A DNA stretch of 64,000 bases from CAVSKL01 sp963728475 [NCBI: Candidatus Eiseniibacteriota bacterium] (GTDB lineage Bacteria > Eisenbacteria > RBG-16-71-46 > JABDJR01), in contig CAVSKL010000002.1 of assembly GCA_963728475.1 (NCBI GenBank), forward strand, positions 124,001-188,000, in the 5' to 3' direction. Of the stretch, positions 14,186 to 62,392 are shown one piece after another (within the stretch, counting starts at the first letter, position 1; each line of letters begins with the position of its first letter). The translations under genes and the position numbers were made by a program. Under the pieces are notes generated by a model that did no database searches, was not told the origin of the DNA, and saw only the letters and a list, made by a program, of their open reading frames with translations.

Positions 14186-17100
14186 TCACCGCACCACCAC
14201 CATCCTTCCCGTCGCGGAGAACCCGGCCGCGCGCAATCGGTACAAGTACACGCCGGCGGGGACGGGTTGCCCCTGGCCGTCGCGGCCGTCCCAGGTCACC
14301 TGGTGGTGCCCCGGCGCCTCGTTGCCGGCGGCGAGCACGCGCACCCGGCGGCCCGCCACGTCGAAGATCTCGATCGCCACGGCGGCCGCCCGCGGGAGCG
14401 CGAAGCGGATGGTGGCGCGCCCGGTGGACGGGTTCGGAGCCGCCGCGCTCAGCACGAACGCCGGCGGCGCGTCCGTGGGGTCGCCCACCGCCGTCTGTCC
14501 CGGCTCGATTACCGTGACCGCCTGGTCCACCGCCGGCGCCGGGAGCACGTGCTGCACGATCCCCGAGGGCCAGCGCACGATCAGCGAATCCACCGTCGTC
14601 GCCGCGCCCAGGCCGAAGCTCGCCACCGGCGCGTCCTGCGAGCAGAATCCCGACCCGCCCGAGAGTTCGCGGATCCTCGTCACCCCGCCCGCCGCGACCT
14701 CCACCCGCGCCCCGATCCCCGCCCGGTTCGACACCGTCCCCTGAAGCTTCACCTGCAGCCAGCGGCTGCCGTTCGCCGTCTCGTTGCGGAAGAGCTTGTT
14801 CGCCCCATCGCGGTTGGCGAGGTAAAGGTCGAGATCGCCGTCGTTGTCGTAGTCCCCCCACGCCACCCCCTGGCCGCCTCCCGCGTCGCCCGCCGGCCCA
14901 TCGACGACGTCCACGAATTCGCCGCCCCCCTGGTTGCGGAACAGCCGGTTCGGCGCGGAGTAGTTGTCGGCGACGTAGAGGTCGAGGTCGCCGTCGTTGT
15001 CGTAGTCCCCCCACGCCACCCCCCAGCTCGAGCTGTTGTCGCCCAGCGGTCCGCTGGTGGCGTCCACGAACACCCCTCCGCCGTCGTTGCGAAAGAGCTT
15101 GTTGCCTGGACCGTCGTTGGCGAGGTAGAGGTCGAGGTCGCCGTCGTTGTCGTAGTCCCCCCATGTCACGCCCGTGCCCTGGCCCGTGTCGCCCAGGGGG
15201 CCGCTGGTGGCGTCCACGAACACGCCGCCACCGTCGTTGCGGAACAGCTTGTTGGCCTGCCCATAATTGGCGAGGTAGAGGTCGAGGTCGCCGTCGTTGT
15301 CGTAGTCCGCCCACGCCACGCCGTCACCCTGGCCGGTGTCGCCCAGCGGGCCGCTGGTGGCGTCCACGAACACGCCGCCGCCGTCGTTACGGAGCAGCTT
15401 GTTGGCCTGCCCAAAGTTGGCGAGGTAGAGGTCGAGGTCGCCGTCGTTGTCGTAGTCCCCCCACGCCGCGCCGATGCCGTCGTCCGGGTCGCCCAGGGGG
15501 CCGGCGGTGGCGTCCGTGAACCCACCGCCACCGGCGTTCCGGAACAGCTTGTTCGACCCGGAGACGACGGCATGGTAGAGGTCGAGGTTGCCGTCGTTGT
15601 CGTAGTCCCCCCACGCCGCGCCGAAGCCGGCACCCGCATCGTCCAGGGGGGCGGCGGTGGCATCCGCAAACACTCCGCCGCCGTCGTTGCGCAGCAGCTT
15701 GTTTGACGATCCATTGTTGGCGAGGTAGAGGTCGAGGTCGCCGTCGTTGTCGTAGTCCCCCCACGCCACGCCCGTGCCCTGGCCGGTGTCGCCCAGCGGG
15801 CCGCTGGTGGCGTCCGCGAAGGCCTGCCCGCTCTCCACCACCGTCACCGCCTGGTCCACCGCCGGCGCCGGGCTCACCGTCTGCACGATCCCCGACGGCC
15901 AGCGGATGACCAGAGAGCTCACCGTCGTCGCCGCGCCCAGTCCGAAGCTCGCCGTCAGCGCGTCCTGCGAAAGAAAGCCCGACCCGCCCGAGACCTCGCT
16001 GATCCGTGTCACCCCGCCCGCCACCACGCTCACCCGCGCCCCGATCCCAGCCCGGTTGGACACCGTCCCCTGGAGCTTCACCTGTAACCAGTGGTTGCCG
16101 TTCGCGGTCTCGTTGCGAAACAGCTTGTTCGCCTCGAGGCCGTTGGCAACGTAGAGGTCGAGGTCGCCGTCGTTGTCGTAGTCCCCCCACGCCACGCCCC
16201 AGCTCGAGCCGGGGTCGCCCACCGGGCCGCTGGTGGCGTCCACGAACACCCCTCCGCCGTCGTTGCGGAACAGCTTGTTCGCCGAGCCGTAGTTGGCGAG
16301 GTAGAGGTCGAGGTCGCCGTCGTTGTCGTAGTCGCCCCAGGCGACGCCCTCGCCGTGGCCGGCGTCGCCCAGGGGGCCGCTGGTGGCGTCCACGAACACC
16401 CCACCGCCGTCGTTACGGAACAGTTTGTTGGCTCCATCGAGGGTGGCGAGGTAGAGGTCGAGGTCGCCGTCGTTGTCGTAGTCCCCCCATGCCACGCCGG
16501 AGCCGTGACCCGTGTCGCCCATCGGACCGCTGGTGACGTCCACGAACATGCCGGCACCGTCGTTGCGGAACAGCTTGTTCGCTGAGCCGTAGTTGACGAG
16601 GTAGAGGTCGAGGTCGCCGTCGTTGTCGTAGTCCCCCCACGCCAAGCACCCGCTCGAGCCGGTATCGCCGAGTGGGCCGCTGGTGGCGTCGACGAACACG
16701 CCGGCACCGTCGTTGCGGAGCAGCTTGTTGGCGCCGTTGCTGTCGGCAAGGTAGAGGTCGAGGTCGCCGTCGTTGTCGTAGTCGCCCCACGCCATGCCGA
16801 AGCCGTAGCCCGAGCCGCCGAGCGGACCGCTGGTGACGTCCACGAACCCGCTGCCGCCGTCGTTGCGCAGGAGCTTGCTCGGAGATTCATAGTTGGAGAC
16901 GTAGAGGTCGAGGTCGCCGTCGTTGTCGTAATCCCCCCAGGCCGCAGCAAGGCCGTAGCTCGGGTCGCCCAGCGGTCCATTGGTGACATCCACGAACACT
17001 CCACCGCCGTCGTTGCGGAACAGCTTGTTCGCCGAGCCGTAGTTGACGAGGTAGAGGTCGAGGTCGCCGTCGTTGTCGTAGTCCCCCCACGCCACGCCCC

Positions 17101-19861
17101 GGGCGTCTCCCGTGTCGCCGAGCGGGCCGGCGGTCGCGTCCACAAAGGCCTGGCCGGGCTCCATCACCGTCACCGCCTGGTCCGCCGCCGGAACCGGGCT
17201 CACGACCTGCACAATCCCCGACGGCCAGCGAACGATCAACGAATCCACCGTGGTTACCGCCCCCAGCCCGAAGTTCGCCACCAGCGCGTCCTGCGAGCAG
17301 AAGCCCGATCCCCCCGACACTTCCCGGATCCTCGTCACCCCGCCGGCCACGACTTCCACCCGGGCTCCGATTCCGGCCCGATTCGACAGCGTTCCCTGAA
17401 GCTTCACCTGCAGCCAGTGGTTGCCGTTCACCGCCTCGTTGCGGAACAGCCGGTTGGGCGTTGTTTCGCCCGCGAGGTAGAGATCCAGGTCGCCGTCGTC
17501 ATCGTAATCCCCCCACGCCACGCCGGTCCCATTGCCCGTGTCGCCCAGGGGAACGGTCGTGGCGTCTGAGAACGTCCCGCCGCCGTCATTGCGGAAAAGC
17601 TTGTTGGCGGTGCCGTAGTTGGCGAGGTAGAGGTCGAGATCGCCATCGTTGTCGTAGTCGCCCCAGGCCACGCCCAAGCCCTGGCCGGTGTCGCCCAGCG
17701 GGCTGGTGGTGACGTCTGCGAACACCCCGCCGCCGTCGTTGCGGAAGAGCCGGTTGGCTCCGTCGTTGGAGAGGTAGAGGTCGAGGTCGCCGTCGTTGTC
17801 GTAGTCCCCCCACGCCACCCCCAAGCCCTGGCCCGTGTCGCCGAGCGGTCCGCTCGTCACGTCCACGAACGCGCCGCCGCCGTCGTTGCGGAACAGCTTG
17901 TTCGGCGAGCCGTAGTTGACGAGGTAAAGGTCGAGATCGCCGTCGTTGTCGTAGTCGCCCCACGCCACGCCCTGGCCGGGCCCGGTGTCGCCCAGCGGGC
18001 CGCTGGTGGCGTCGGCGAACACCCCGCCGCCGTCGTTGCGGAGCAGCTTGTTCGCCGAGAGGCTGTTGACGAGGTAGAGGTCGAGGTCGCCGTCGTTGTC
18101 GTAATCCCCCCACGCCGCAGCAAGGCCGTAGTTCGGGTCGCCCAACGGTCCATTGGTGACATCCACGAACACTCCACCGCCGTCGTTGCGGAACAGCGCG
18201 TTAGCCTGGCCGAGATTGGTGAGGTAGAGGTCGAGGTCGCCGTCGTTGTCGTAGTCCCCCCATGCCACCCCGACGCCGCTGCGTGCATCACCCAGCGGGC
18301 CGCTGGTGGCATCCACCCATGTCCCCCCGTCGTTGCGGAAGAGCTTGTTCGCCTGACCATTGTTGGCGAGATAGAGGTCGAGGTCGCCGTCGTTGTCGTA
18401 GTCCCCCCACGCCACGCCCTCGCCACTGCCCGAGTCGCCCAGCGGACCGCCGCCGGTCGCGTTCACGAAGGCAGGCCCGCTCTCCACCACCGTCACCGCC
18501 TGATCCACCGCCGGCGCAGAACTCACCGTCTGCACGACCCCCGACGGCCAGTAGACGATCAGCGAATCCACCGTCGTCGCCGCGCCCAGCCCGAAGCTCG
18601 CGGTGAGGGCGTTCTGCGACCCGTAGCCCAGGCCGCCCGAGACTTCGCGCACCTGGCTCAGGGAGCCCGCCACCACGCGAACCCGGGCGCCGATCCCCGA
18701 GCGGTTCGACAGCGTTCCCTGAAGCTTCACCTCCAGCCAGTGGTTCCCGTTGGCCTGGTCGTTGCGAAGCAGCGTGTTCGCCTGGTTGTCGTTGGCGACG
18801 TAGAGATCCAGGTCGCCGTCGTTGTCGTAGTCCCCCCATGACCCGCCCCGCCCTTGTCCCGGGTCGCCCACCGGGCCGCTGGTCACGTCCACGAACGTCC
18901 CGCCGCCGTCGTTTCGGAACAGCTTGTTCGCGGAGCCGTAGTTGACGAGGTAGAGGTCGAGGTCGCCGTCGTTGTCGTAGTCCGCCCACAGCACGACGCG
19001 CCCGGCGTCGGTGTCGCCGAGCGGTCCGCTGGTCACGTCGACGAACGTGCCGCCGCCGTCATTTCTAAACAGCCGGTTCGCCGCGCTGCCGCCCATGACC
19101 AGATAGAGATCCGGATCCCCGTCGTTGTCGTAGTCGCCCCAGGCCACGCCCTCGCCGTTGCCGGCGTCGCCCAGGGGCCCGCTCGTCACGTCGACGAAGG
19201 TGCCGCCGCCGTCGTTGCGGAACAGCTTGTTGGCCTGCCCCTCGTTGGAGAGATAAAGGTCCGGGTCGCCGTCCAGATCGTAGTCGGCCCAGGCGATGCC
19301 GATCCCGTTGCCGGCGTTGTCGAGCGGCGCGGTGGTGGCGTCCACCCAGACTCCGTTGTCGTTGCGGAACAGTTTGTTGGCGGTGCCGTAGTTGGCGACG
19401 TAGAGGTCGAGGTCGCCGTCGTTGTCGTAGTCCACCCAGGCGACGTCGAGGCCCGAATCGGCGTCCCCGAGCGGGCCGCTGGTGGCGTCGACGAAGGTGC
19501 CGCCGCCGTCGTTTCGGAACAGCCGGTTGGCCCCGATCGCCCCTACGTAGAGGTCTGGATCGCCGTCGTTGTCGTAGTCGCCCCAGGCGACCGCGGCCGT
19601 GCCACCGCCGTCGTCGAGCGGCGCGGTCGCGACGTTGACGAAGCTGCCTCCGTCGTTGCGGAACAGGCGGTTGGGGCCGCCGGCGTTGGAGAGGAAGAGA
19701 TCGAGATCGCCGTCGTTGTCATAGTCGGCCCAGGCGGTGCCCCAGCCGTAGCTCGCATCGTCGAGCGGCGGCAGGGTCACGTCGCTGAACTGGGCATGGG
19801 CGGCGGTCGCGGCGGAGAGCAGGGCACCCAGAATGAGGGCGGTCGTCGCGTAGCGCCTCAT
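14186..19861 (-). CDS. Giant secreted FG-GAP/VCBS repeat protein with four ASPIC/UnbV domains and FlgD-like C-terminus
   Basis: Exported protein of 1891 residues, CRTAC1-like. The start at 19861 gives a signal peptide ending AATAAHAQ, with GGAGG nine bases upstream. The body has 28 blade motifs of the form AWGDYDNDGDLDLYLANYG (Ca-binding DxDxDxDxD loops) about 50 residues apart. An ASPIC/UnbV domain (GNHWLQVKLQGT, SNRAGIGARV, WPSGIVQ) follows every seventh blade, giving four modules of about 444 residues. The last 90 residues are a FlgD-like Ig domain (PNPSTGRATIRFALP, IFDVAGRRVRVL, GVYLYRL) of the kind used as a sorting tag in FCB bacteria. Four tandem seven-bladed propellers would suit cell-surface adhesion or ligand binding. 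No enzyme motif is visible. Confidence 0.93.
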   Translation of the reverse strand: MRRYATTALILGALLSAATAAHAQFSDVTLPPLDDASYGWGTAWADYDNDGDLDLFLSNAGGPNRLFRNDGGSFVNVATAPLDDGGGTAAVAWGDYDNDGDPDLYVGAIGANRLFRNDGGGTFVDATSGPLGDADSGLDVAWVDYDNDGDLDLYVANYGTANKLFRNDNGVWVDATTAPLDNAGNGIGIAWADYDLDGDPDLYLSNEGQANKLFRNDGGGTFVDVTSGPLGDAGNGEGVAWGDYDNDGDPDLYLVMGGSAANRLFRNDGGGTFVDVTSGPLGDTDAGRVVLWADYDNDGDLDLYLVNYGSANKLFRNDGGGTFVDVTSGPVGDPGQGRGGSWGDYDNDGDLDLYVANDNQANTLLRNDQANGNHWLEVKLQGTLSNRSGIGARVRVVAGSLSQVREVSGGLGYGSQNALTASFGLGAATTVDSLIVYWPSGVVQTVSSAPAVDQAVTVVESGPAFVNATGGGPLGDSGSGEGVAWGDYDNDGDLDLYLANNGQANKLFRNDGGTWVDATSGPLGDARSGVGVAWGDYDNDGDLDLYLTNLGQANALFRNDGGGVFVDVTNGPLGDPNYGLAAAWGDYDNDGDLDLYLVNSLSANKLLRNDGGGVFADATSGPLGDTGPGQGVAWGDYDNDGDLDLYLVNYGSPNKLFRNDGGGAFVDVTSGPLGDTGQGLGVAWGDYDNDGDLDLYLSNDGANRLFRNDGGGVFADVTTSPLGDTGQGLGVAWGDYDNDGDLDLYLANYGTANKLFRNDGGGTFSDATTVPLGDTGNGTGVAWGDYDDDGDLDLYLAGETTPNRLFRNEAVNGNHWLQVKLQGTLSNRAGIGARVEVVAGGVTRIREVSGGSGFCSQDALVANFGLGAVTTVDSLIVRWPSGIVQVVSPVPAADQAVTVMEPGQAFVDATAGPLGDTGDARGVAWGDYDNDGDLDLYLVNYGSANKLFRNDGGGVFVDVTNGPLGDPSYGLAAAWGDYDNDGDLDLYVSNYESPSKLLRNDGGSGFVDVTSGPLGGSGYGFGMAWGDYDNDGDLDLYLADSNGANKLLRNDGAGVFVDATSGPLGDTGSSGCLAWGDYDNDGDLDLYLVNYGSANKLFRNDGAGMFVDVTSGPMGDTGHGSGVAWGDYDNDGDLDLYLATLDGANKLFRNDGGGVFVDATSGPLGDAGHGEGVAWGDYDNDGDLDLYLANYGSANKLFRNDGGGVFVDATSGPVGDPGSSWGVAWGDYDNDGDLDLYVANGLEANKLFRNETANGNHWLQVKLQGTVSNRAGIGARVSVVAGGVTRISEVSGGSGFLSQDALTASFGLGAATTVSSLVIRWPSGIVQTVSPAPAVDQAVTVVESGQAFADATSGPLGDTGQGTGVAWGDYDNDGDLDLYLANNGSSNKLLRNDGGGVFADATAAPLDDAGAGFGAAWGDYDNDGNLDLYHAVVSGSNKLFRNAGGGGFTDATAGPLGDPDDGIGAAWGDYDNDGDLDLYLANFGQANKLLRNDGGGVFVDATSGPLGDTGQGDGVAWADYDNDGDLDLYLANYGQANKLFRNDGGGVFVDATSGPLGDTGQGTGVTWGDYDNDGDLDLYLANDGPGNKLFRNDGGGVFVDATSGPLGDNSSSWGVAWGDYDNDGDLDLYVADNYSAPNRLFRNQGGGEFVDVVDGPAGDAGGGQGVAWGDYDNDGDLDLYLANRDGANKLFRNETANGSRWLQVKLQGTVSNRAGIGARVEVAAGGVTRIRELSGGSGFCSQDAPVASFGLGAATTVDSLIVRWPSGIVQHVLPAPAVDQAVTVIEPGQTAVGDPTDAPPAFVLSAAAPNPSTGRATIRFALPRAAAVAIEIFDVAGRRVRVLAAGNEAPGHHQVTWDGRDGQGQPVPAGVYLYRLRAAGFSATGRMVVVR
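14790..19800. repeat. Coding tandem repeat: 28 blades of about 150 bp in four 1.33-kb modules
   Basis: The core GTCGCCGTCGTTGTCGTAGT recurs about every 150 bases (for example near 14993, 15143, 15293, 15443, 15593 and 15743). The ASPIC segments recur about every 1.33 kb (near 14760, 16090, 17425 and 18735). Some blades are almost identical at DNA level: the stretch from 16950 and that from 18124 differ at only a few positions over about 70 bases. This points to recent segmental duplication or gene conversion. Such DNA is prone to copy-number change and assembly collapse. Confidence 0.9.
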
Positions 19862-20293
19862 GAGACATGTCCTCCCGGGCCGTTTCTCCGGCGGTGCTGA
19901 GAACCCGCGTTGCCCGGAGGTCGGTCGATGGCGTCCACGAGGCTCACCGAACCGGACGGGGGCCCTCCGAGGGGAGCGGCCAGGACGAGCATTGGAAAAT
20001 ACGACCAATTTGATCCGATATGATAGCACACACCGATCGGGAGCGAACCGGGGAAGGGGAAGTGCCCGACCGGGAGCGCTTCGGCCCGGCATCGCCGGCC
20101 GGCGGGGAGCGGGGCCCCGGCGCTGCCGGAAACGCCCGGCGCCGCCGCTTGCCAGAGGATCCGGTTCTGAGTAGACTGCGAGGATGTTCCCGGATGGGAG
20201 CGAGGCCGCGCTCGAACACGTATCCGATCCCCCGAGGACCTCGTTTCCCTGTCGTGTCGGTCCTTCATCCCAACCCCCTTGAGGAGGTACCGC
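19862..20293. other. Divergent intergenic region between the FG-GAP gene and the RiPP precursor
   Basis: The 432 bases contain no supported gene. The plus-strand RiPP promoter is annotated separately (20149-20177). For the minus-strand FG-GAP gene, an AT-rich patch near 19995-20035 contains, on the minus strand, TGCTATCAT, which could be an extended -10 element. I see no clear -35 for it. Confidence 0.5.
20149..20177 (+). promoter_or_regulatory. Candidate sigma-70-like promoter of the RiPP locus
   Basis: TTGCCA (20149-20154) and TAGACT (20172-20177) are separated by exactly 17 bases, 117 bases before the precursor ATG. The same -10 hexamer, TAGACT, with the same spacing, occurs at the sigma-kinase-CHAT operon (27769-27797). 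Confidence 0.5.
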
Positions 20294-20425
20294 ATGAAGA
20301 AGCTCACCGGAAAGCTGACCCTGAACAAGGAGACGGTGAAGAAGCTGAACAGCCCGAAGCGGGGACCGGGTCACACCCAGCCCACGACCACGGTTCAGCC
20401 CTCCTATCTCTCCAAGTGCTGCTGA
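20294..20425 (+). CDS. Class I lanthipeptide-like RiPP precursor peptide (43 aa)
   Basis: Precursor peptide of 43 residues. AGGAGG lies eight bases before the ATG. Residues 1-19 (MKKLTGKLTLNKETVKKLN) form a leader with the LxLNKETVxxL pattern seen in precursors of LanB-type lanthipeptides from Bacteroidetes-like bacteria. Residues 20-43 are the likely core: they contain Ser20, Thr28, Thr31-33, Ser37 and Ser40 and end in SYLSKCC. Dehydratable Ser/Thr and C-terminal Cys42-Cys43 are what a dehydratase and thioether chemistry need. A full-length LanB gene begins 89 bases downstream after a hairpin. The leader-core boundary is unclear; no double-Gly site is present, and RGPG at 23-26 could mark it. 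The call rests on composition plus context. Confidence 0.8.
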   Translation: MKKLTGKLTLNKETVKKLNSPKRGPGHTQPTTTVQPSYLSKCC

Positions 20426-20456
20426 CCGCCAGGTAGTCGGCGAGCACCGCTCTTTG

Positions 20457-20491
20457 CGCCACGAGCAGCGCCTGCGCTGCTCGTGGCGTTT
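20457..20491 (+). terminator. Hairpin between precursor and LanB (attenuator or terminator)
   Basis: A perfect 15-bp inverted repeat (20457-20471 and 20474-20488, arms CGCCACGAGCAGCGC and complement) is followed by only three T residues. It starts 31 bases after the precursor stop. The weak T tract suggests partial read-through, which would give more precursor than modifying enzyme, as is common in RiPP operons. Confidence 0.65.
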
Positions 20492-20514
20492 CCGCCGGAC
20501 CCGCCGTCGAGACC

Positions 20515-23500
20515 ATGAAAGGGAAGCCGGGCACCTCCCGCGGGGAACCCCCCATCGCCGCGAGTCCGGGGGGCCGCCGGCGGGCCGCGGTCGCCGGGGG
20601 TCCCGTCGCCGGGCCCCGCCCACCGGACCCCCGCCCCGGGCCTCATTCGTCGGGCCCCGGGTACACCGTCGATTTCTTCGTCCTCCGGACGCCGCTTCTC
20701 CCCTGGGACACCCTGGAGGCGTGGGCCGGAGGACTGGAGGCGCCCGCTTTCGAGGGCCGGGAACTCCAGGCCGCGCTTGAGCGCGACCGCGAGACCCTCT
20801 CTTCCCGGCTCCAGCGGCTCGCGCAGGAGCCGGTCCTCCGCGAGGCGCTCTTCCTCGGCTCCCCCGATCTCGAGTCGAGCCTGGAGGTGTGGTTCGCCGA
20901 TTCCGGGAGCGAGCGGGGGCGGCGGGTGGGCCGGGCGGTGCTCCGCTACGTCACCCGCATGTGCGCCCGGGCCACTCCGTTCGGGCTCTTCGCGGGCCAC
21001 GCTCTCGGCATCACCGGTTCGCGCACCCGCCTCGAGGTGCCCCCGCGCGAAGCGTCCTCGCGCCACACCCGCCTCGACATGGACTATCTCCTCGCTCTGG
21101 CCGAAACGCTCGGCCGGGAAGAGGGCATCCGGGCGGACCTCTCCTATCGCCTGAACTCCAGCCTCTACCGCGCCGCCGGCCGCATCCGCTACGTGGAGTC
21201 GCGACTCCAGGACAAGGCGCGTACCCATCACCTGGTGGCCCTGGAGCCGGCCCCGTACCTGGAGTCCACCCTCGCCCTGGCGGCGGCGGGCGCCACTCCG
21301 TCGGAGCTGGCGCGCCCCCTGGTGGACGGTGAGGTGAGCCTCGAGGAAGCGGAGGCCTTTGTCCGGGAGCTCACCGAGACCCAGATTCTGGTCTCCGGCC
21401 TCTCGCCGGCGGTGACCGGTCCCGAGCCGATTCACGGTCTGGTGGATCTGCTCGAGCGCCTGCCCGCGGGCCGGGCGGCGGCCGGGCGGCTGCGGGAAGC
21501 CGGAGCCGCCCTCCAGGAGCTGGACCGCGAGGGGCTGGGGCACGCTCCCGACCGGTATCGCGGCATCGCGGCGCGGTTGCCGGAGCCCTCGGAGAAGCCC
21601 GACCTGGCCCGGCTCTTCCAGGTGGACCTGGTGAAGGGGCCCAGCGCGCTCACTCTCGCCGAGGAGGTGATCGCGGAGATCGCGCGCGGCGTCGAGACGT
21701 TGCGGAGCGTGTTCGGCGGCCGGGGCGAGGATCCGCTGGCCGCATTCCGGGAGGCGTTCATCCGCCGCTACGAGGGGCGCGAAGTGCCCCTGGCCGAGGC
21801 CCTGGATGAAGAGGTGGGGGTGGGGTTCGCCGCGTCCGACGCTCCCTCCGCCGAGGCCTCTCCGCTCCTCGACGGCCTCCGGTTTCCCGAAGCCTCGGGT
21901 GAGGAGCGCGACCCATGGACCGCCCCGCAGCGGGCGCTCCTCCTGCGAAAGCTGGACGAGGCGGTGCGGACCGGCGCGATCGAGATCGATCTGGAAGCCG
22001 GAGACCTGAGGATCCTGGCCTCTCCGCGGCCGGGCCCGCTGCCCAACGCCTACGCGGCCATGGTCACCCTGGCCGCGCCCTCGGCCGGGGCGGTGGACCG
22101 CGGCGAGTACCGGGTAGTGCTGGAAGGGGTGACCGGACCGTCCGGGGTGCGGTTGCTGGGCCGCTTCTGCCATGCCGATCCGGACCTGCGCCGCCGGGTC
22201 GAGGCGCATCTGCGCGCCGAGGAGGCGCTCACCCCCGGCGCGCTTTTCGCGGAGATCGTGCACCTCCCCGAGGGGCGCATCGGCAACGTGCTCTGCCGGC
22301 CGGTCCTGCGCAAGCACGAAATCCCGTACCTGGGCCGCTCCGGGGCCTCGGAGGAATTCCAGCTTCCGCTGGGGGACCTGCGCGTCCGCGTGGACGGCGG
22401 CCGCGTGGTGCTCCGCTCCGCCCGGCTGGACCGCGAGATCCTCCCCCGCATGTCCACCGCCCACAACTTCACCTGGCAGAGCGTGGGCGTGTACCGGTTC
22501 CTCTGCCTGCTCCAGAACCAGGACGGTCCCGCCGGGCTCGGGTGGCGGTGGGGAACCCTGGGGGAGGCGGCCTTCCTCCCCCGGGTCAGCTGCGGGCGGG
22601 TGGTTCTTGCGCCGGCCCACTGGCGGGTGGAGCGGGAGGAGATGCGGGCGATCCCGGCCGACGGCGGCGCGGACTCCATGCGCGCGGTCCGCCGGTGGCG
22701 CGCGCGGCGGGGGCTTCCGCGCTGGGTCTCCTTGGCCGAGGCCGACCACGTGTTGCCGGTGGACCTGGAGAACGTGCTCGGGGTCGACATGCTGCTCCAC
22801 CTGGTCCGGGAGCGTGACGCCTCGATCCTGCGGGAAATGTTCCCCGGCCCCGGCGACCTCTGCGCCGCCGGCCCCGAGGGACGCTTCGTGCACGAGCTGG
22901 TCGTGCCCTTCGTCCGCCGGCGGGAACCCTCGCCCGCTCCCTCCCGGCCCCGGGACGAGGATGCCCCGGGCGGGGAGCGCCGCCGCGTCTTCTTCCCGGG
23001 GTCGGACTGCCTGTTCGTCGCCCTCCATACCGGGACCTCGACCGCCGACCGGCTCCTCCGCCGCCTGGTGCGCCCCCTGGTGGACGAGGCCCTCGGCTCC
23101 GGCGCGGCCCGGCGCTGGTTCTTCATCCGCTACGCCGATCCCGAATGGCATCTGCGGGTGCGCTTCTTCGGTCCCCCCGCGCGGCTCGCCGCCGAGGTCC
23201 TTCCGAGACTGGAGAGCCTGGCCGCGCCGCTCTTCGAAGAGGGCGGCCTCTCCCGCCTCTCGCTCCTCACCTACGAGCGCGAGGTGGAGCGGTACGGCGG
23301 TCCGGAAGGGGTCGAGTGCGCGGAGGCGATGTTCCAGGAGGACAGCGTGGCCGCGCTGGAGATCGTCGAGACCCTGGCCGGGGACGCGGGGGCCGACGCG
23401 CGCTGGCGGCTCGCCCTGGTGGGCATGGACCGGCTCCTCGAGGACCTGGGGCTCGACCTGGAAGCGAAGCTCGGGGTGGTGCGCGCTTCCCGGGCCGCGC

Positions 23501-23856
23501 TCGGAAGGGAGTTCGAGGTGGACAAGGAGTTCGAGGGCCGGCTGGGAATGCGGTTCCGGGGCGAGCGGGGGTCCCTGGAGGCGCTCCTCGGGGCCTCGGA
23601 CGACGAGGACGGAGAGCTGGGGCCGGGCCTGGCCGCGCTCCGGCGGCGGTCGGATCGCCTGGTCCCCTGGTGCCGGCGCCTGCGGGAACTGGAGCGCGAA
23701 GGGCGGCTCGCCTGCAAGAGGGACGAGCTCGCGGCCAGCCACCTCCACATGCACGCCAACCGGCTCTTGCGCTCCTCCCACCGCGCCCAGGAGCTCGTGA
23801 TCTACGACTTCCTGGTCCGGCTCTACCGCTCGCAGCTCGCCCGTCAAGTTCGCTGA
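20515..23856 (+). CDS. lanB: Full-length lantibiotic dehydratase (LanB) with elimination domain
   Basis: Protein of 1113 residues. Class I LanB enzymes glutamylate Ser/Thr of a precursor using Glu-tRNA and then eliminate glutamate to give dehydroalanine or dehydrobutyrine. Conserved LanB landmarks start at YTVDFFVLRTPLLPWDTLEAW (about residue 49). They include the RMCARATPFGLFAG segment, the HNFTWQSVGVYRFL region and a C-terminal SpaB_C/elimination domain (about 815-1110). That domain carries RRWFFIRYADPEWHLRVRFF, TYEREVERYGGPEG and HLHMHANRLLRSS. Both halves are fused, so the enzyme should be self-sufficient. The ATG at 20515 lacks a clear ribosome site and the first 48 residues are Pro/Gly/Arg-rich. 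No in-frame alternative start lies between. No LanC, protease or exporter is in the window. Confidence 0.93.
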   Translation: MKGKPGTSRGEPPIAASPGGRRRAAVAGGPVAGPRPPDPRPGPHSSGPGYTVDFFVLRTPLLPWDTLEAWAGGLEAPAFEGRELQAALERDRETLSSRLQRLAQEPVLREALFLGSPDLESSLEVWFADSGSERGRRVGRAVLRYVTRMCARATPFGLFAGHALGITGSRTRLEVPPREASSRHTRLDMDYLLALAETLGREEGIRADLSYRLNSSLYRAAGRIRYVESRLQDKARTHHLVALEPAPYLESTLALAAAGATPSELARPLVDGEVSLEEAEAFVRELTETQILVSGLSPAVTGPEPIHGLVDLLERLPAGRAAAGRLREAGAALQELDREGLGHAPDRYRGIAARLPEPSEKPDLARLFQVDLVKGPSALTLAEEVIAEIARGVETLRSVFGGRGEDPLAAFREAFIRRYEGREVPLAEALDEEVGVGFAASDAPSAEASPLLDGLRFPEASGEERDPWTAPQRALLLRKLDEAVRTGAIEIDLEAGDLRILASPRPGPLPNAYAAMVTLAAPSAGAVDRGEYRVVLEGVTGPSGVRLLGRFCHADPDLRRRVEAHLRAEEALTPGALFAEIVHLPEGRIGNVLCRPVLRKHEIPYLGRSGASEEFQLPLGDLRVRVDGGRVVLRSARLDREILPRMSTAHNFTWQSVGVYRFLCLLQNQDGPAGLGWRWGTLGEAAFLPRVSCGRVVLAPAHWRVEREEMRAIPADGGADSMRAVRRWRARRGLPRWVSLAEADHVLPVDLENVLGVDMLLHLVRERDASILREMFPGPGDLCAAGPEGRFVHELVVPFVRRREPSPAPSRPRDEDAPGGERRRVFFPGSDCLFVALHTGTSTADRLLRRLVRPLVDEALGSGAARRWFFIRYADPEWHLRVRFFGPPARLAAEVLPRLESLAAPLFEEGGLSRLSLLTYEREVERYGGPEGVECAEAMFQEDSVAALEIVETLAGDAGADARWRLALVGMDRLLEDLGLDLEAKLGVVRASRAALGREFEVDKEFEGRLGMRFRGERGSLEALLGASDDEDGELGPGLAALRRRSDRLVPWCRRLRELEREGRLACKRDELAASHLHMHANRLLRSSHRAQELVIYDFLVRLYRSQLARQVR

Positions 23857-23953
23857 GGTCGCGCGGGCCGGGGGAGGGAACCCCTTCACCGACCGGCGGC
23901 GAAGGGGCCGGTCCAGGGACTACGGCGCCGCGCGATCCAGGTAGAATCCTCCG

Positions 23954-24931
23954 ATGCCCCACCGCCGGCGTTCGCTCGTCCTGGCCGCGACGGCCCTCGT
24001 TCTCCTCATCGTGGTCCTGGAGGTCTTCGTCCCTCCGGGGAACACCCGGTGGTGGAACACGGTGTTCAACGCCGGCCACGCCCCGCTCTTCGGCGTCTTC
24101 TCCTGGATCGCGCTCTGGGGGGTGCTCCGGGCTTGGCCCGCCGCCGGCCGGAGCCGGGTGGGCCGGTATCTGGCGGTGTTCGCCCTGGCCGCCTCCGCCG
24201 GGGCGGGAAGCGAGATCCTCCAGCACTTCACCGGCCGCGACGCCGAGCTCGGCGACTGGGCCCGCGACCTGGCCGGGATCACCGCCTGCCTGCTCATGGC
24301 CGCCGCCTTCGATCCCCGGCTTCCCGTCCTGCCCCGCCGGCGGGCGCCCGCCCGGGTGGCGTTGCTGGCCCTCGCCTTCATCCCGGTGTGGATCGTGGCC
24401 GAGCCGGTGCTGGAGGTGGGGAACGCCTACCGCGAGCGCGACCTCGCCTTCCCGGTGCTCCTGAGCTTCGACGCCGCCTGGGAGCGCTTCTTCTTCTCCG
24501 TGAGCGACGGGTCGGTGGCGTGGAAACCGCTCCCCGCGCCCTCCCGGGAGCGCGAGGGGAATCTCGCCGGCCGGGTCACCCTGAACGCGCTCCCCGACGG
24601 CTATCCCGGAATCAGCATGAGCGAGCCGGTCGGCGACTGGACGGGTTACCGGACGCTGGCCTTCACCGTGGTGTCGCCCAGCCCGGAGCCGCGCGCGCTC
24701 CAGCTCCGGGTGGACGACGCCTTCGTGAAACAGGACTGGAGCCGCGCCTCCTACGTGGAGTTCACGGTGAGACCGGGGCGGAACCGGATCCGCATCCCCC
24801 TGGAGACGATCCGCGCCCAGCCCTCCGGTCATCCCCTGGACATGAGCCGGATCGCCGTGTTCGAGGTGTTCGCGGCCAAGCCCCGGCTCCCGCTCACCTT
24901 CTTCGTGGACGATTTCCGGCTGGAGCGCTAG
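23954..24931 (+). CDS. VanZ-like membrane protein with C-terminal beta-sandwich domain
   Basis: Protein of 325 residues. The first 140 residues carry about four membrane helices (LVLAATALVLLIVVLEVFV first) with the VanZ pattern: a HAPLFGVFSW segment and SEILQHFTGRDAELGDWARDLAG, close to the E-x-x-Q-x-F-x-x-R-x-x-x-x-D-x-x-x-N/D motif. Residues about 195-325 are soluble and resemble a carbohydrate-binding beta-sandwich (SYVEFTVRPGRNRIRIPLE, ending LTFFVDDFRLER). It follows LanB by 97 bases on the same strand. VanZ of enterococci gives low-level teicoplanin resistance, so an immunity role in the RiPP locus is conceivable but unproven. The stop overlaps the convergent oxidoreductase stop. Confidence 0.75.
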   Translation: MPHRRRSLVLAATALVLLIVVLEVFVPPGNTRWWNTVFNAGHAPLFGVFSWIALWGVLRAWPAAGRSRVGRYLAVFALAASAGAGSEILQHFTGRDAELGDWARDLAGITACLLMAAAFDPRLPVLPRRRAPARVALLALAFIPVWIVAEPVLEVGNAYRERDLAFPVLLSFDAAWERFFFSVSDGSVAWKPLPAPSREREGNLAGRVTLNALPDGYPGISMSEPVGDWTGYRTLAFTVVSPSPEPRALQLRVDDAFVKQDWSRASYVEFTVRPGRNRIRIPLETIRAQPSGHPLDMSRIAVFEVFAAKPRLPLTFFVDDFRLER

Positions 24932-60370: not shown

Positions 60371-62392
60371 ATGCTCATCGCCCAGCTCACCGAGATCCAG
60401 AAGTCCTACGGCGCGCACACCGTGCTGGAGGGCGTCCACTGGCAGATCGCCGACGGCGCCCGGGCCGCCCTGGTGGGACGGAACGGAGCGGGCAAGACCA
60501 CCCTCTTCCGGCTCCTACTCGGGGACCTCGAGCCCGACCGGGGCACGGTGTGGTTCCGCAAGGGCGCGGTGGTGGCGGCCATGGAGCAGGAGGTGCGGAT
60601 CGAGGACCGCCGCACCCTGCGCGAGGAGGCGGCCCGCGGGCTTCGCCACCTGGAGGAGCTGCACGAGGAGTTCGGCGAAGTCACCGCCCGCCTCGGCGCG
60701 GTCACCGAGGGCGATCCCGGCACGCAGGACCTCCTCGACCGCTACGCCCACCTGCAGGAGCGCCTGGAGCGCGAAGGGGGCTATTCGTTCGAGGCGCGGG
60801 TGCAGGCGGTGCTGACCGGCCTCCACTTCGCCGAGGAGGATCTCGACCGCCCCCTCGCCGAGTTCAGCGGCGGCCAGAAGTCGCGCGCGATCCTCGCCCG
60901 GGTGCTGTTGCGCGACCCCGATCTGCTCCTTCTCGACGAGCCCACCAACCATCTCGACCTGGACGCCATCGAGTGGCTGGAGAACTTCCTCCAGAACTAC
61001 CAGGGCGCGTTCGTGGTGGTGAGCCACGACCGCATGTTCCTGAACCGGGTGACCGACCGGACCGCCGAGCTCCGCCACCGCAAGCTCCACCACTTCCACG
61101 GCAACTACGACGGCTTTCTGGTCGAGCGGGAGCGGCGGCTGGAGGAGCAGGCCCGGCACTACGAGCTTCAGCGGGCCGAGATCTCCCGGCAGGAGGACTT
61201 CATCCGCCGCAACATCGCCGGGCAGAAGACCAAGCAGGCCCAGGCCCGCAGGAAGATGCTGGAGAAGCTGGAGCGGGTGGAGCCGCCGGAGTGGCCGGCC
61301 TCGAGCATCCGCATGGAGATCCCCGAGCCCGAGCGGAGCGCGCGGAACGTGGTCGAGGCCCGCCGCGCCGCCAAACGATACGGCGAGACCACCATCTTTT
61401 CCGAGGCCTCGTTCCTGATCCTCCGCGGCCAGAAGGTCGGCCTGGTGGGTCCGAACGGCGTGGGCAAGAGCACCCTGGTGCGACTCCTGGTGGGGGAGGA
61501 GAGCCCCACCTCCGGGCGGCTCAAGATCGGCCCCGGAGTGCGGATCGGCTACTACGAGCAGGAGCAGACCGGGATCCGCGGGCCCCAGAGCGTGCTCGAC
61601 GAGGTCTGGAAGGTCACCCCCCAGGTTACCGAGAACGAGATCCGCAACTTCCTGGGTTCGTTCCTCTTTCGCGGCGACGAGGTGTTCAAGGCGCTGAATC
61701 AGCTCTCGGGCGGGGAGAAGAGCCGGGTCGCGCTGGCCATGCTGGTGCGCGAGGGCGCCAACTTCCTCGTCCTCGACGAGCCCACCAACCACCTCGACAT
61801 CGAGTCCCGCGAGGTGTTCGAGGCCGCGCTTCGGGCCTTCGGCGGCACCGTGCTGGTGGTGAGCCACGACCGCTACTTCCTCGACCGGGTGGTGGATCAC
61901 GTGATGGAACTCCGCGCGGACGGGTGCCACCTGTGGGAGGGGGGGTATAGCGCCTACGCCCGCGCCCGGGTCCGCGCGCCGGTCCCCGAGGCCCCTGCGC
62001 CGGCGGCGCCCCCGGCCGCTGCCGAGAGCCGGCTTCCCGAAACACGCCCGGCCGGGCGGCAGCGCGCCGGCCGGGATCCGGTGCCTCCTCCGGCGCCGCC
62101 GGCCGCGAAGGAGGAACGCCGGCGTGGCTACGAAGCGGAGCGCCGGCGCAAGCGCGACGAGGCGGCGCTCCGCCGCCGGGTGGCCGACGCCGAGGCGCGG
62201 GTGGAGGAGTTGGAAGGGCGCCGCGAGAGCCTCGTCCTGTCCATGTCCGACCCCGAGGTCGCGGTGGATCCCGGCCGGCTGGCCCGTCTCTCGGGCGACC
62301 TTCGCGAGCTGGAGGCGGGGATTCGCGCCGCCATCGCGGAATGGGAGCGCCTTTCGGTCCGGCTCGAGGGTTTTCTCGACCTCGATAACTGA
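60371..62392 (+). CDS. ABC-F family ATPase (Uup/EttA-like translation factor)
   Basis: Protein of 673 residues with two ABC domains and no membrane segments. Domain 1 has GRNGAGKTTLF, FSGGQKSRAILA and LLLLDEPTNHLDLDA; domain 2 has GPNGVGKSTLV, LSGGEKSRVALA and FLVLDEPTNHLDIES. The interdomain linker (about 235-320) is charged and helical, as in the P-site tRNA interaction motif. A Pro/Ala-rich spacer and a C-terminal coiled coil (about 585-670, rich in Arg/Glu) match the Uup-type DNA- or ribosome-binding tail. It acts on ribosomes, relieving stalled or hibernating states; antibiotic resistance is another ABC-F role. It is monocistronic. Confidence 0.94.
   Translation: MLIAQLTEIQKSYGAHTVLEGVHWQIADGARAALVGRNGAGKTTLFRLLLGDLEPDRGTVWFRKGAVVAAMEQEVRIEDRRTLREEAARGLRHLEELHEEFGEVTARLGAVTEGDPGTQDLLDRYAHLQERLEREGGYSFEARVQAVLTGLHFAEEDLDRPLAEFSGGQKSRAILARVLLRDPDLLLLDEPTNHLDLDAIEWLENFLQNYQGAFVVVSHDRMFLNRVTDRTAELRHRKLHHFHGNYDGFLVERERRLEEQARHYELQRAEISRQEDFIRRNIAGQKTKQAQARRKMLEKLERVEPPEWPASSIRMEIPEPERSARNVVEARRAAKRYGETTIFSEASFLILRGQKVGLVGPNGVGKSTLVRLLVGEESPTSGRLKIGPGVRIGYYEQEQTGIRGPQSVLDEVWKVTPQVTENEIRNFLGSFLFRGDEVFKALNQLSGGEKSRVALAMLVREGANFLVLDEPTNHLDIESREVFEAALRAFGGTVLVVSHDRYFLDRVVDHVMELRADGCHLWEGGYSAYARARVRAPVPEAPAPAAPPAAAESRLPETRPAGRQRAGRDPVPPPAPPAAKEERRRGYEAERRRKRDEAALRRRVADAEARVEELEGRRESLVLSMSDPEVAVDPGRLARLSGDLRELEAGIRAAIAEWERLSVRLEGFLDLDN

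What the first reader, a model, noticed from the sequence alone, without database searches (positions are those of the whole stretch)
20294..24931. Minimal RiPP locus: uncalled 43-aa lanthipeptide-like precursor, full LanB, VanZ-like protein, no cyclase
Seen: a 43-codon gene with AGGAGG, an LxLNKETVxxL leader and a Ser/Thr-rich core ending Cys-Cys, 89 bases before a fused two-domain LanB, then a VanZ-like membrane protein, with a promoter 117 bases upstream. Known: full-length LanB installs dehydro-residues and normally works with a LanC cyclase, a protease and an exporter. None of these is within 30 kb on the right or 20 kb on the left. Inference: the product may be cyclised by a distant LanC, cyclise spontaneously, or stay a linear dehydropeptide. 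VanZ could give self-protection if the target is lipid II.
Basis: partly seen in the sequence, partly recalled or inferred. Interest (0 to 1): 0.88.

Follow-up and report, generated by a model that had tools for sequence, protein, structure and literature searches.

The report
Two-gene lanthipeptide locus without local cyclase
A tiny 43-residue peptide gene sits beside a large enzyme that dehydrates such peptides, the core of a known antibiotic-like peptide pathway; the ring-forming enzyme is missing nearby, and comparison with relatives suggests, without proving it, that it is encoded elsewhere in the genome rather than dispensed with.

Summary
The 43-codon frame (20294-20425) has AGGAGG, scores above the curated cut-off of the class I lanthipeptide leader model NF038153 (23.1 vs 22 bits), ranks first of 839 window frames against a profile built from relatives only, and is followed by a 15-bp stem-loop. 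LanB is complete with conserved motifs intact. No LanC was found in the 64 kb. The 'VanZ' score is below the model's cut-off, and no significant relative lies beside other LanBs examined.

Conservation test: of 27 Acidobacteriota LanB regions fetched, 13 have a short gene with this leader, all with Cys, and 12 of these 13 also hold LanC. Eight others lack LanC in the whole genome, and there LanB faces a cysteine-FREE peptide gene, 8 of 8. The window's peptide has two cysteines, so a LanC elsewhere in its genome is the likeliest reading. No whole genome is held, so this stays open. A stripped-down variant of a known kind; the LanC-free, cysteine-free set is the more unusual find.

The parts
20149..20177 (+). 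sigma-70-like promoter TTGCCA-17-TAGACT
   Evidence: consensus scan, 1 found vs 0.1 expected; not proof of function
20282..20287 (+). ribosome-binding site AGGAGG
   Evidence: sequence
20294..20425 (+). lanA-like precursor gene, 43 aa; leader MKKLTGKLTLNKETVKKL, then 7 Ser/Thr and a C-terminal Cys-Cys, no GG motif
   Evidence: NF038153 above cut-off; rank 1 of 839 frames
20456..20489 (+). 15-bp stem-loop between lanA and lanB, terminator/attenuator-like with a short U run
   Evidence: -32.2 kcal/mol, z -4.9, 0 of 200 shuffles as good; the terminator scan did not list it (needs 5 T); stem-loops also follow the stop of 17 relatives' genes, without a shuffle control
20515..23856 (+). full-length LanB dehydratase (glutamylation and elimination domains)
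   Evidence: PF04738 + PF14028 full length; motifs aligned with relatives; PDB relatives 5ehk, 9g04, NisB
23954..24931 (+). membrane protein with weak VanZ similarity and a C-terminal CBM_11-like stretch; neighbour, probably not part of the system
   Evidence: 18.8 bits vs cut-off 20, CBM_11 15.9 vs 27; no significant relative beside other LanBs

Best explanation
A genuine class I lanthipeptide precursor-dehydratase pair. One transcript starts about 117 nt upstream; the stem-loop after lanA lets much precursor and little LanB be made (inferred). LanB binds the KLTLNKETVKKL leader, glutamylates Ser/Thr of the core with Glu-tRNA and eliminates glutamate to give Dha/Dhb (inferred from family and intact motifs). 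The two C-terminal cysteines are then closed into thioether rings by a LanC encoded elsewhere in the genome, and a protease and exporter also act in trans; with no GG motif, a protease other than the usual double-glycine type is expected (all inferred).
For: Leader model NF038153 above cut-off and rank 1 of 839; full LanB; RBS and stem-loop. LanB relatives (40-53% identity) in the class of G002 carry precursors with the same leader within 6 kb of LanB in 11 of 14 regions, with LanC in 10 of those 11; 8 of the 25 relatives' precursors end in CC like this one. Cysteines are retained here; in the 8-genome clade without LanC the peptides have none. LanC away from LanB occurs: 14 kb on the same contig in G016; outside the ~20-kb stretch held but in the genome for L028, L031, L063 and L067.
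Against: No LanC in 20 kb left and 40 kb right, whereas it lies in the stretch held (about 10 kb each side) in 35 of 44 well-flanked loci. No whole genome is held, so a distant LanC is not shown. LanC-free LanB genomes are not rare in what I tested: 19 of 50 had no match (chosen sets, completeness not told). The peptide is shorter than all 25 compared, has only two Cys (23 of 25 have three or more) and no GG (23 of 25 have it). For the distant LanCs it is not shown that they serve that LanB.
Confidence: 0.55

Rival explanations
1. LanC-free system: LanB alone makes a dehydropeptide that stays linear, or whose two C-terminal cysteines add spontaneously to nearby Dha/Dhb.
For: No LanC found in the 64 kb. 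LanC-free LanB genomes exist: 8 genomes of one Acidobacteriota clade and G005, whose LanB is a neighbour of the window's in the tree, with weak support (0.2-0.5). Ring closure can occur above pH 7.5 without LanC, but LanC is needed for the correct ring pattern (PMC9889658, passage seen).
Against: All 8 clade peptides and the L005 candidate lack Cys; the window has two. Absence of LanC is shown for 64 kb only.
Confidence: 0.28
2. A decaying or relic locus: lanC, exporter, protease and most cysteines lost, precursor eroding.
For: Shortest precursor, two Cys where 23 of 25 have three or more, GG absent; neighbours are unrelated genes.
Against: LanB is open over 1113 codons with the inspected motifs kept; RBS, promoter-like site and stem-loop are intact.
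Confidence: 0.12
3. The short frame is chance and LanB acts on another substrate.
For: Only 43 codons; no close relative of the whole peptide was found; LanBs without a precursor recognisable by my pattern are common in the 80 loci.
Against: Curated leader model above cut-off, rank 1 of 839, same leader near LanB in 13 of 27 Acidobacteriota regions.
Confidence: 0.05

Closest known systems
Class I lanthipeptides with NF038153 (lant_leader_L1a) leaders, as in Thermoanaerobaculia and Archangium
   Same: Leader KLxLxKET[LV]xxL, full-length LanB nearby, CC ending in 8 of 25, stem-loop after lanA
   Different: No local LanC, no GG motif, 43 aa and only two Cys
LanC-less LanB + Cys-free peptide clade in Acidobacteriota (loci L112-L119, this work)
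   Same: Full LanB, no LanC nearby, short Ser/Thr-rich peptide
   Different: There the peptide gene is divergent from LanB, Cys-free and matched by no NCBIfam model; here co-directional with Cys-Cys
Pearlins (short LanB / PEARL) and pyritides
   Same: LanB superfamily without a lanthionine cyclase, precursors without Cys (PMC11002830, passages seen)
   Different: Those use truncated LanBs; here both domains are complete and fused and the peptide has Cys
Cyanotins / prochlorosins (class II)
   Same: Some lanthipeptide-synthetase substrates lack Cys (PMC7268733 and PMC11251773, passages seen)
   Different: Their synthetase is LanM with its own cyclase domain, not LanB
Nisin-type NisABTCIP (gene order recalled)
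   Same: lanA-lanB order and LanB chemistry
   Different: None of T, C, I, P found in the 64 kb; NisB only distantly similar (E 2.8e-23)

Membership tests
Class I lanthipeptide locus | precursor with a recognised leader | tested here: met
   NF038153 23.1 bits, cut-off 22
Class I lanthipeptide locus | core with Ser/Thr and Cys | tested here: met
   7 Ser/Thr and 2 Cys after the leader (sequence)
Class I lanthipeptide locus | full-length LanB with both domains and catalytic-type motifs | tested here: met
   which residues are catalytic is recalled from NisB work
Class I lanthipeptide locus | LanC cyclase in the producer | tested here: inconclusive
   not found in 64 kb; no whole genome held
Class I lanthipeptide locus | lanthionine rings in the product | not testable with these tools
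   needs mass spectrometry
LanC-less, Cys-free LanB clade | precursor without Cys | tested here: not met
   window ends Cys-Cys; clade 0 Cys in 8 of 8
LanC-less, Cys-free LanB clade | no LanC in the genome | tested here: inconclusive
   only 64 kb seen
Short-LanB systems (pearlins) and split-LanB systems (thiopeptides, pyritides) | truncated or split LanB | tested here: not met
   both domains in one protein
VanZ-type self-protection | VanZ family membership by the curated cut-off | tested here: not met
   18.8 bits, cut-off 20
VanZ-type self-protection | conserved link to LanB | tested here: inconclusive
   one weak hit (E 0.40) among the 124 loci, none in 19 regions; 0 of 145 genomes, which has no positive control

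The most novel reading that the evidence does not exclude
Full-length LanBs have more than once become independent of LanC; the window is a transitional case in which LanB alone makes a dehydropeptide with a reactive C-terminal Cys-Cys, related to a clade that went on to cysteine-free, Thr-rich linear dehydropeptides.
Probability: 0.22. Interest if true: 0.78.

Novelty: new variant of a known kind. Interest (0 to 1): 0.5.

Why it matters
Surveys anchored on the cyclase cannot see such loci (PMC7268733 started from LANC_like hits, passages seen; PMC11251773 is also cyclase-based by its title and passages). The comparison suggests a simple, testable rule, cysteines in the peptide only where the genome has LanC, and points to genomes where complete LanBs may make linear dehydropeptides.

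Tried and rejected
Rejected: VanZ as immunity (one search has no positive control). Rejected: other RiPP genes among the window frames scanned. Not achieved: a taxonomic placement; the ABC-F protein at 60371-62392 is best matched by genomes from the Acidobacteriota searches (44% G016, 42% G002, 41% G150, among 25 genomes), too low to name the organism. Looked for a precursor beside solitary LanBs of Arcicella-type Bacteroidota: none found with my pattern. No precursor was found for the LanC-free L004 and L014 either, so they do not test the Cys rule. Literature searches: none of the listed titles and abstract beginnings reports a complete LanB with a Cys-free precursor and no LanC. Of the papers I opened only passages of PMC7268733, PMC11002830, PMC9889658, PMC8960859 and PMC11251773; most subscription journals are not held. 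Structure prediction was not run: the family of LanB is clear without it, and leader binding needs a complex.

Rows dropped: four pattern hits (L043, L045, L064, L073) were judged spurious by eye; I used 25 hand-picked precursors and left out L124's, a fourth L158 frame (one Cys), the L059 frame and the Bacteroidota ones, 26 loci whose LanB frame was under 850 aa (many look split into two frames) were left out of the tree; for I chose 46 loci and one more (L024) was dropped for length. PF05147 was searched in chosen sets: 20 genomes, 17, 17, 50 different ones in all. One search also held a wrong stretch (L112 with turned coordinates); one search repeats that scan for all eight peptides.

Full report
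What is there. The 43-codon frame at 20294-20425 has AGGAGG six bases before its ATG and lies 89 bases before a 1113-codon LanB. The leader matches NCBIfam NF038153 lant_leader_L1a at 23.1 bits, above the curated cut-off of 22; no Pfam family matched it. LanB covers PF04738 and PF14028 from end to end and is related to 5ehk (MibB, name recalled), 9g04 and NisB in the PDB. Four motifs, RxxxR-x-TPFGLF, F[IV]RYxDPxxHLRxR, ERYGG and HMHxNR, are kept in the window and in all eight LanBs of the LanC-free clade; other relatives show single deviations (for example DRYGG in L007, GRYGG in L162, TPYGLF in L005, HMF or HMS in some). That these residues are catalytic is recalled from NisB work. Between lanA and lanB lies a 15-bp stem-loop at 20456-20489, -32.2 kcal/mol, z -4.9. 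Stem-loops of -17 to -36 kcal/mol also follow the stop codons of the 17 relatives' genes folded, but these GC-rich sequences were not compared with shuffles.

Is the short gene real? I built a profile from 25 precursors of relatives, without the window. Among 839 stop-to-stop frames of at least 28 codons in the window, this frame is first (E 1.8e-4; second 0.016). A scan with LanB gave 80 loci; a strict leader pattern found plausible precursors within 6 kb at 13 of 80, with four more hits judged spurious; many of these loci are distant or on short contigs. Nearer LanBs, up to 53% identical, came from the class of G002, whose locus L002 is titled Thermoanaerobaculia: 19 of 148 genomes matched, some only in part. 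In all I fetched 27 Acidobacteriota regions (13, 14). Nineteen were examined: 13 have a short gene with this leader within 6 kb of LanB, all with Cys; the six others (L128, L154, L165, L120, L121, L122) do not, three of them on contigs that end close to LanB. The remaining eight regions are the LanC-free clade below. Eight of the 25 precursors end in CC, for example ...LLSRCC in L161 against ...YLSKCC here. No close orthologue of the whole window peptide was found, so coding constraint on it could not be measured.

The missing LanC. None was found in the 64 kb. Among the 80 loci, 54 have LanC in the stretch held; of 44 with at least 9 kb on both sides, 35 have it and 9 do not. Of those 9: for L055 the LanC is 14 kb from LanB on the same contig, outside the stretch; L005 and L014 have no match in the genome, nor L040 and L066; L028, L031, L063 and L067 have LanC in the genome outside the stretch. 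Over all chosen genomes, 19 of 50 had no PF05147 match; completeness is not told and some are metagenome-assembled. LanC is present in 18 of the 19 regions; the exception, L155, carries a Cys-bearing precursor and is cut by a contig end on one side; its whole genome was not searched for LanC.

LanC-free relatives. Of 17 genomes tested, 11 lack LanC; eight of these form one LanB clade (support 1.0) in Acidobacteriota with genomes of 3.2-3.4 Mb, four of the eight LanBs on contigs over 1 Mb. In all eight a gene for 50-54 residues faces away from LanB, with LSFRKESIQ in its leader and a Ser/Thr-rich end; none of the eight peptides has a Cys. Codon-position differences were 0.25, 0.28 and 0.38, a modest third-position excess, with more amino-acid-changing than silent codon differences (609 vs 215), so constraint outside the leader is weak. 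No NCBIfam family matches any of the eight. Their LanBs keep the motifs, and the one scanned, L114, keeps both domains in full. L005, LanC-free and near the window's LanB in the tree with weak support, has a Cys-free candidate (16.4 bits to NF038153, below cut-off) with a weak start. So where both could be seen, Cys goes with LanC. The eight genomes are one clade, so with L005 this is at most two independent events, not nine.

Reading for the window. Its core keeps two cysteines, as the LanC-bearing relatives do. I therefore favour a LanC in trans, with LanC-free action as the main rival. The lack of a protease is common (about one third of lanthipeptide clusters, PMC8960859, passage seen). 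23 of the 25 compared precursors have GG at the leader end; the window has GPG near the aligned place, so leader removal probably differs (inference).

The neighbour at 23954-24931 scores below the VanZ cut-off; the only hit to it near other LanBs was E 0.40. Its link to the system is only adjacency.

Known work. The survey PMC7268733 started from LANC_like proteins (passages seen), so LanC-free loci were outside it. The review PMC11002830 describes LanC-less, Cys-less clusters with short LanBs (passages seen), and Cys-free substrates are known for class II synthetases (PMC7268733, PMC11251773, passages seen); the clade here has full-length LanBs. None of the titles and abstract beginnings listed by searches reports that arrangement.

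Noticed in passing
L112:11622-11780 (+) and the like in L113-L119: Eight LanC-free Acidobacteriota genomes with full LanB and a divergent Cys-free LSFRKESIQ peptide gene; a 58-aa gene follows LanB in seven of the eight loci, DUF3606 where scanned (L114).
   Followed up: partly
L022, L028, L030, L031, L034, L040, L066: Solitary LanBs among unrelated genes in Arcicella-type Bacteroidota, no leader-type precursor found by my pattern; genomes of L030, L034, L040 and L066 have no LanC match.
   Followed up: partly
L121:14726-15420: Three tandem frames with shared RKLVKDDIS stretch and RGCTT..CC cores, a different leader, LanC about 14 kb from LanB.
   Followed up: no
window 14186-19870 (minus): Very long repetitive protein with many WGDYDNDGDLDLY repeats (FG-GAP-like, recalled), divergent from the lanA promoter region.
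   Followed up: no
L161:4019-5517: Six tandem precursor paralogues with near-identical leaders and CC-ending cores.
   Followed up: no
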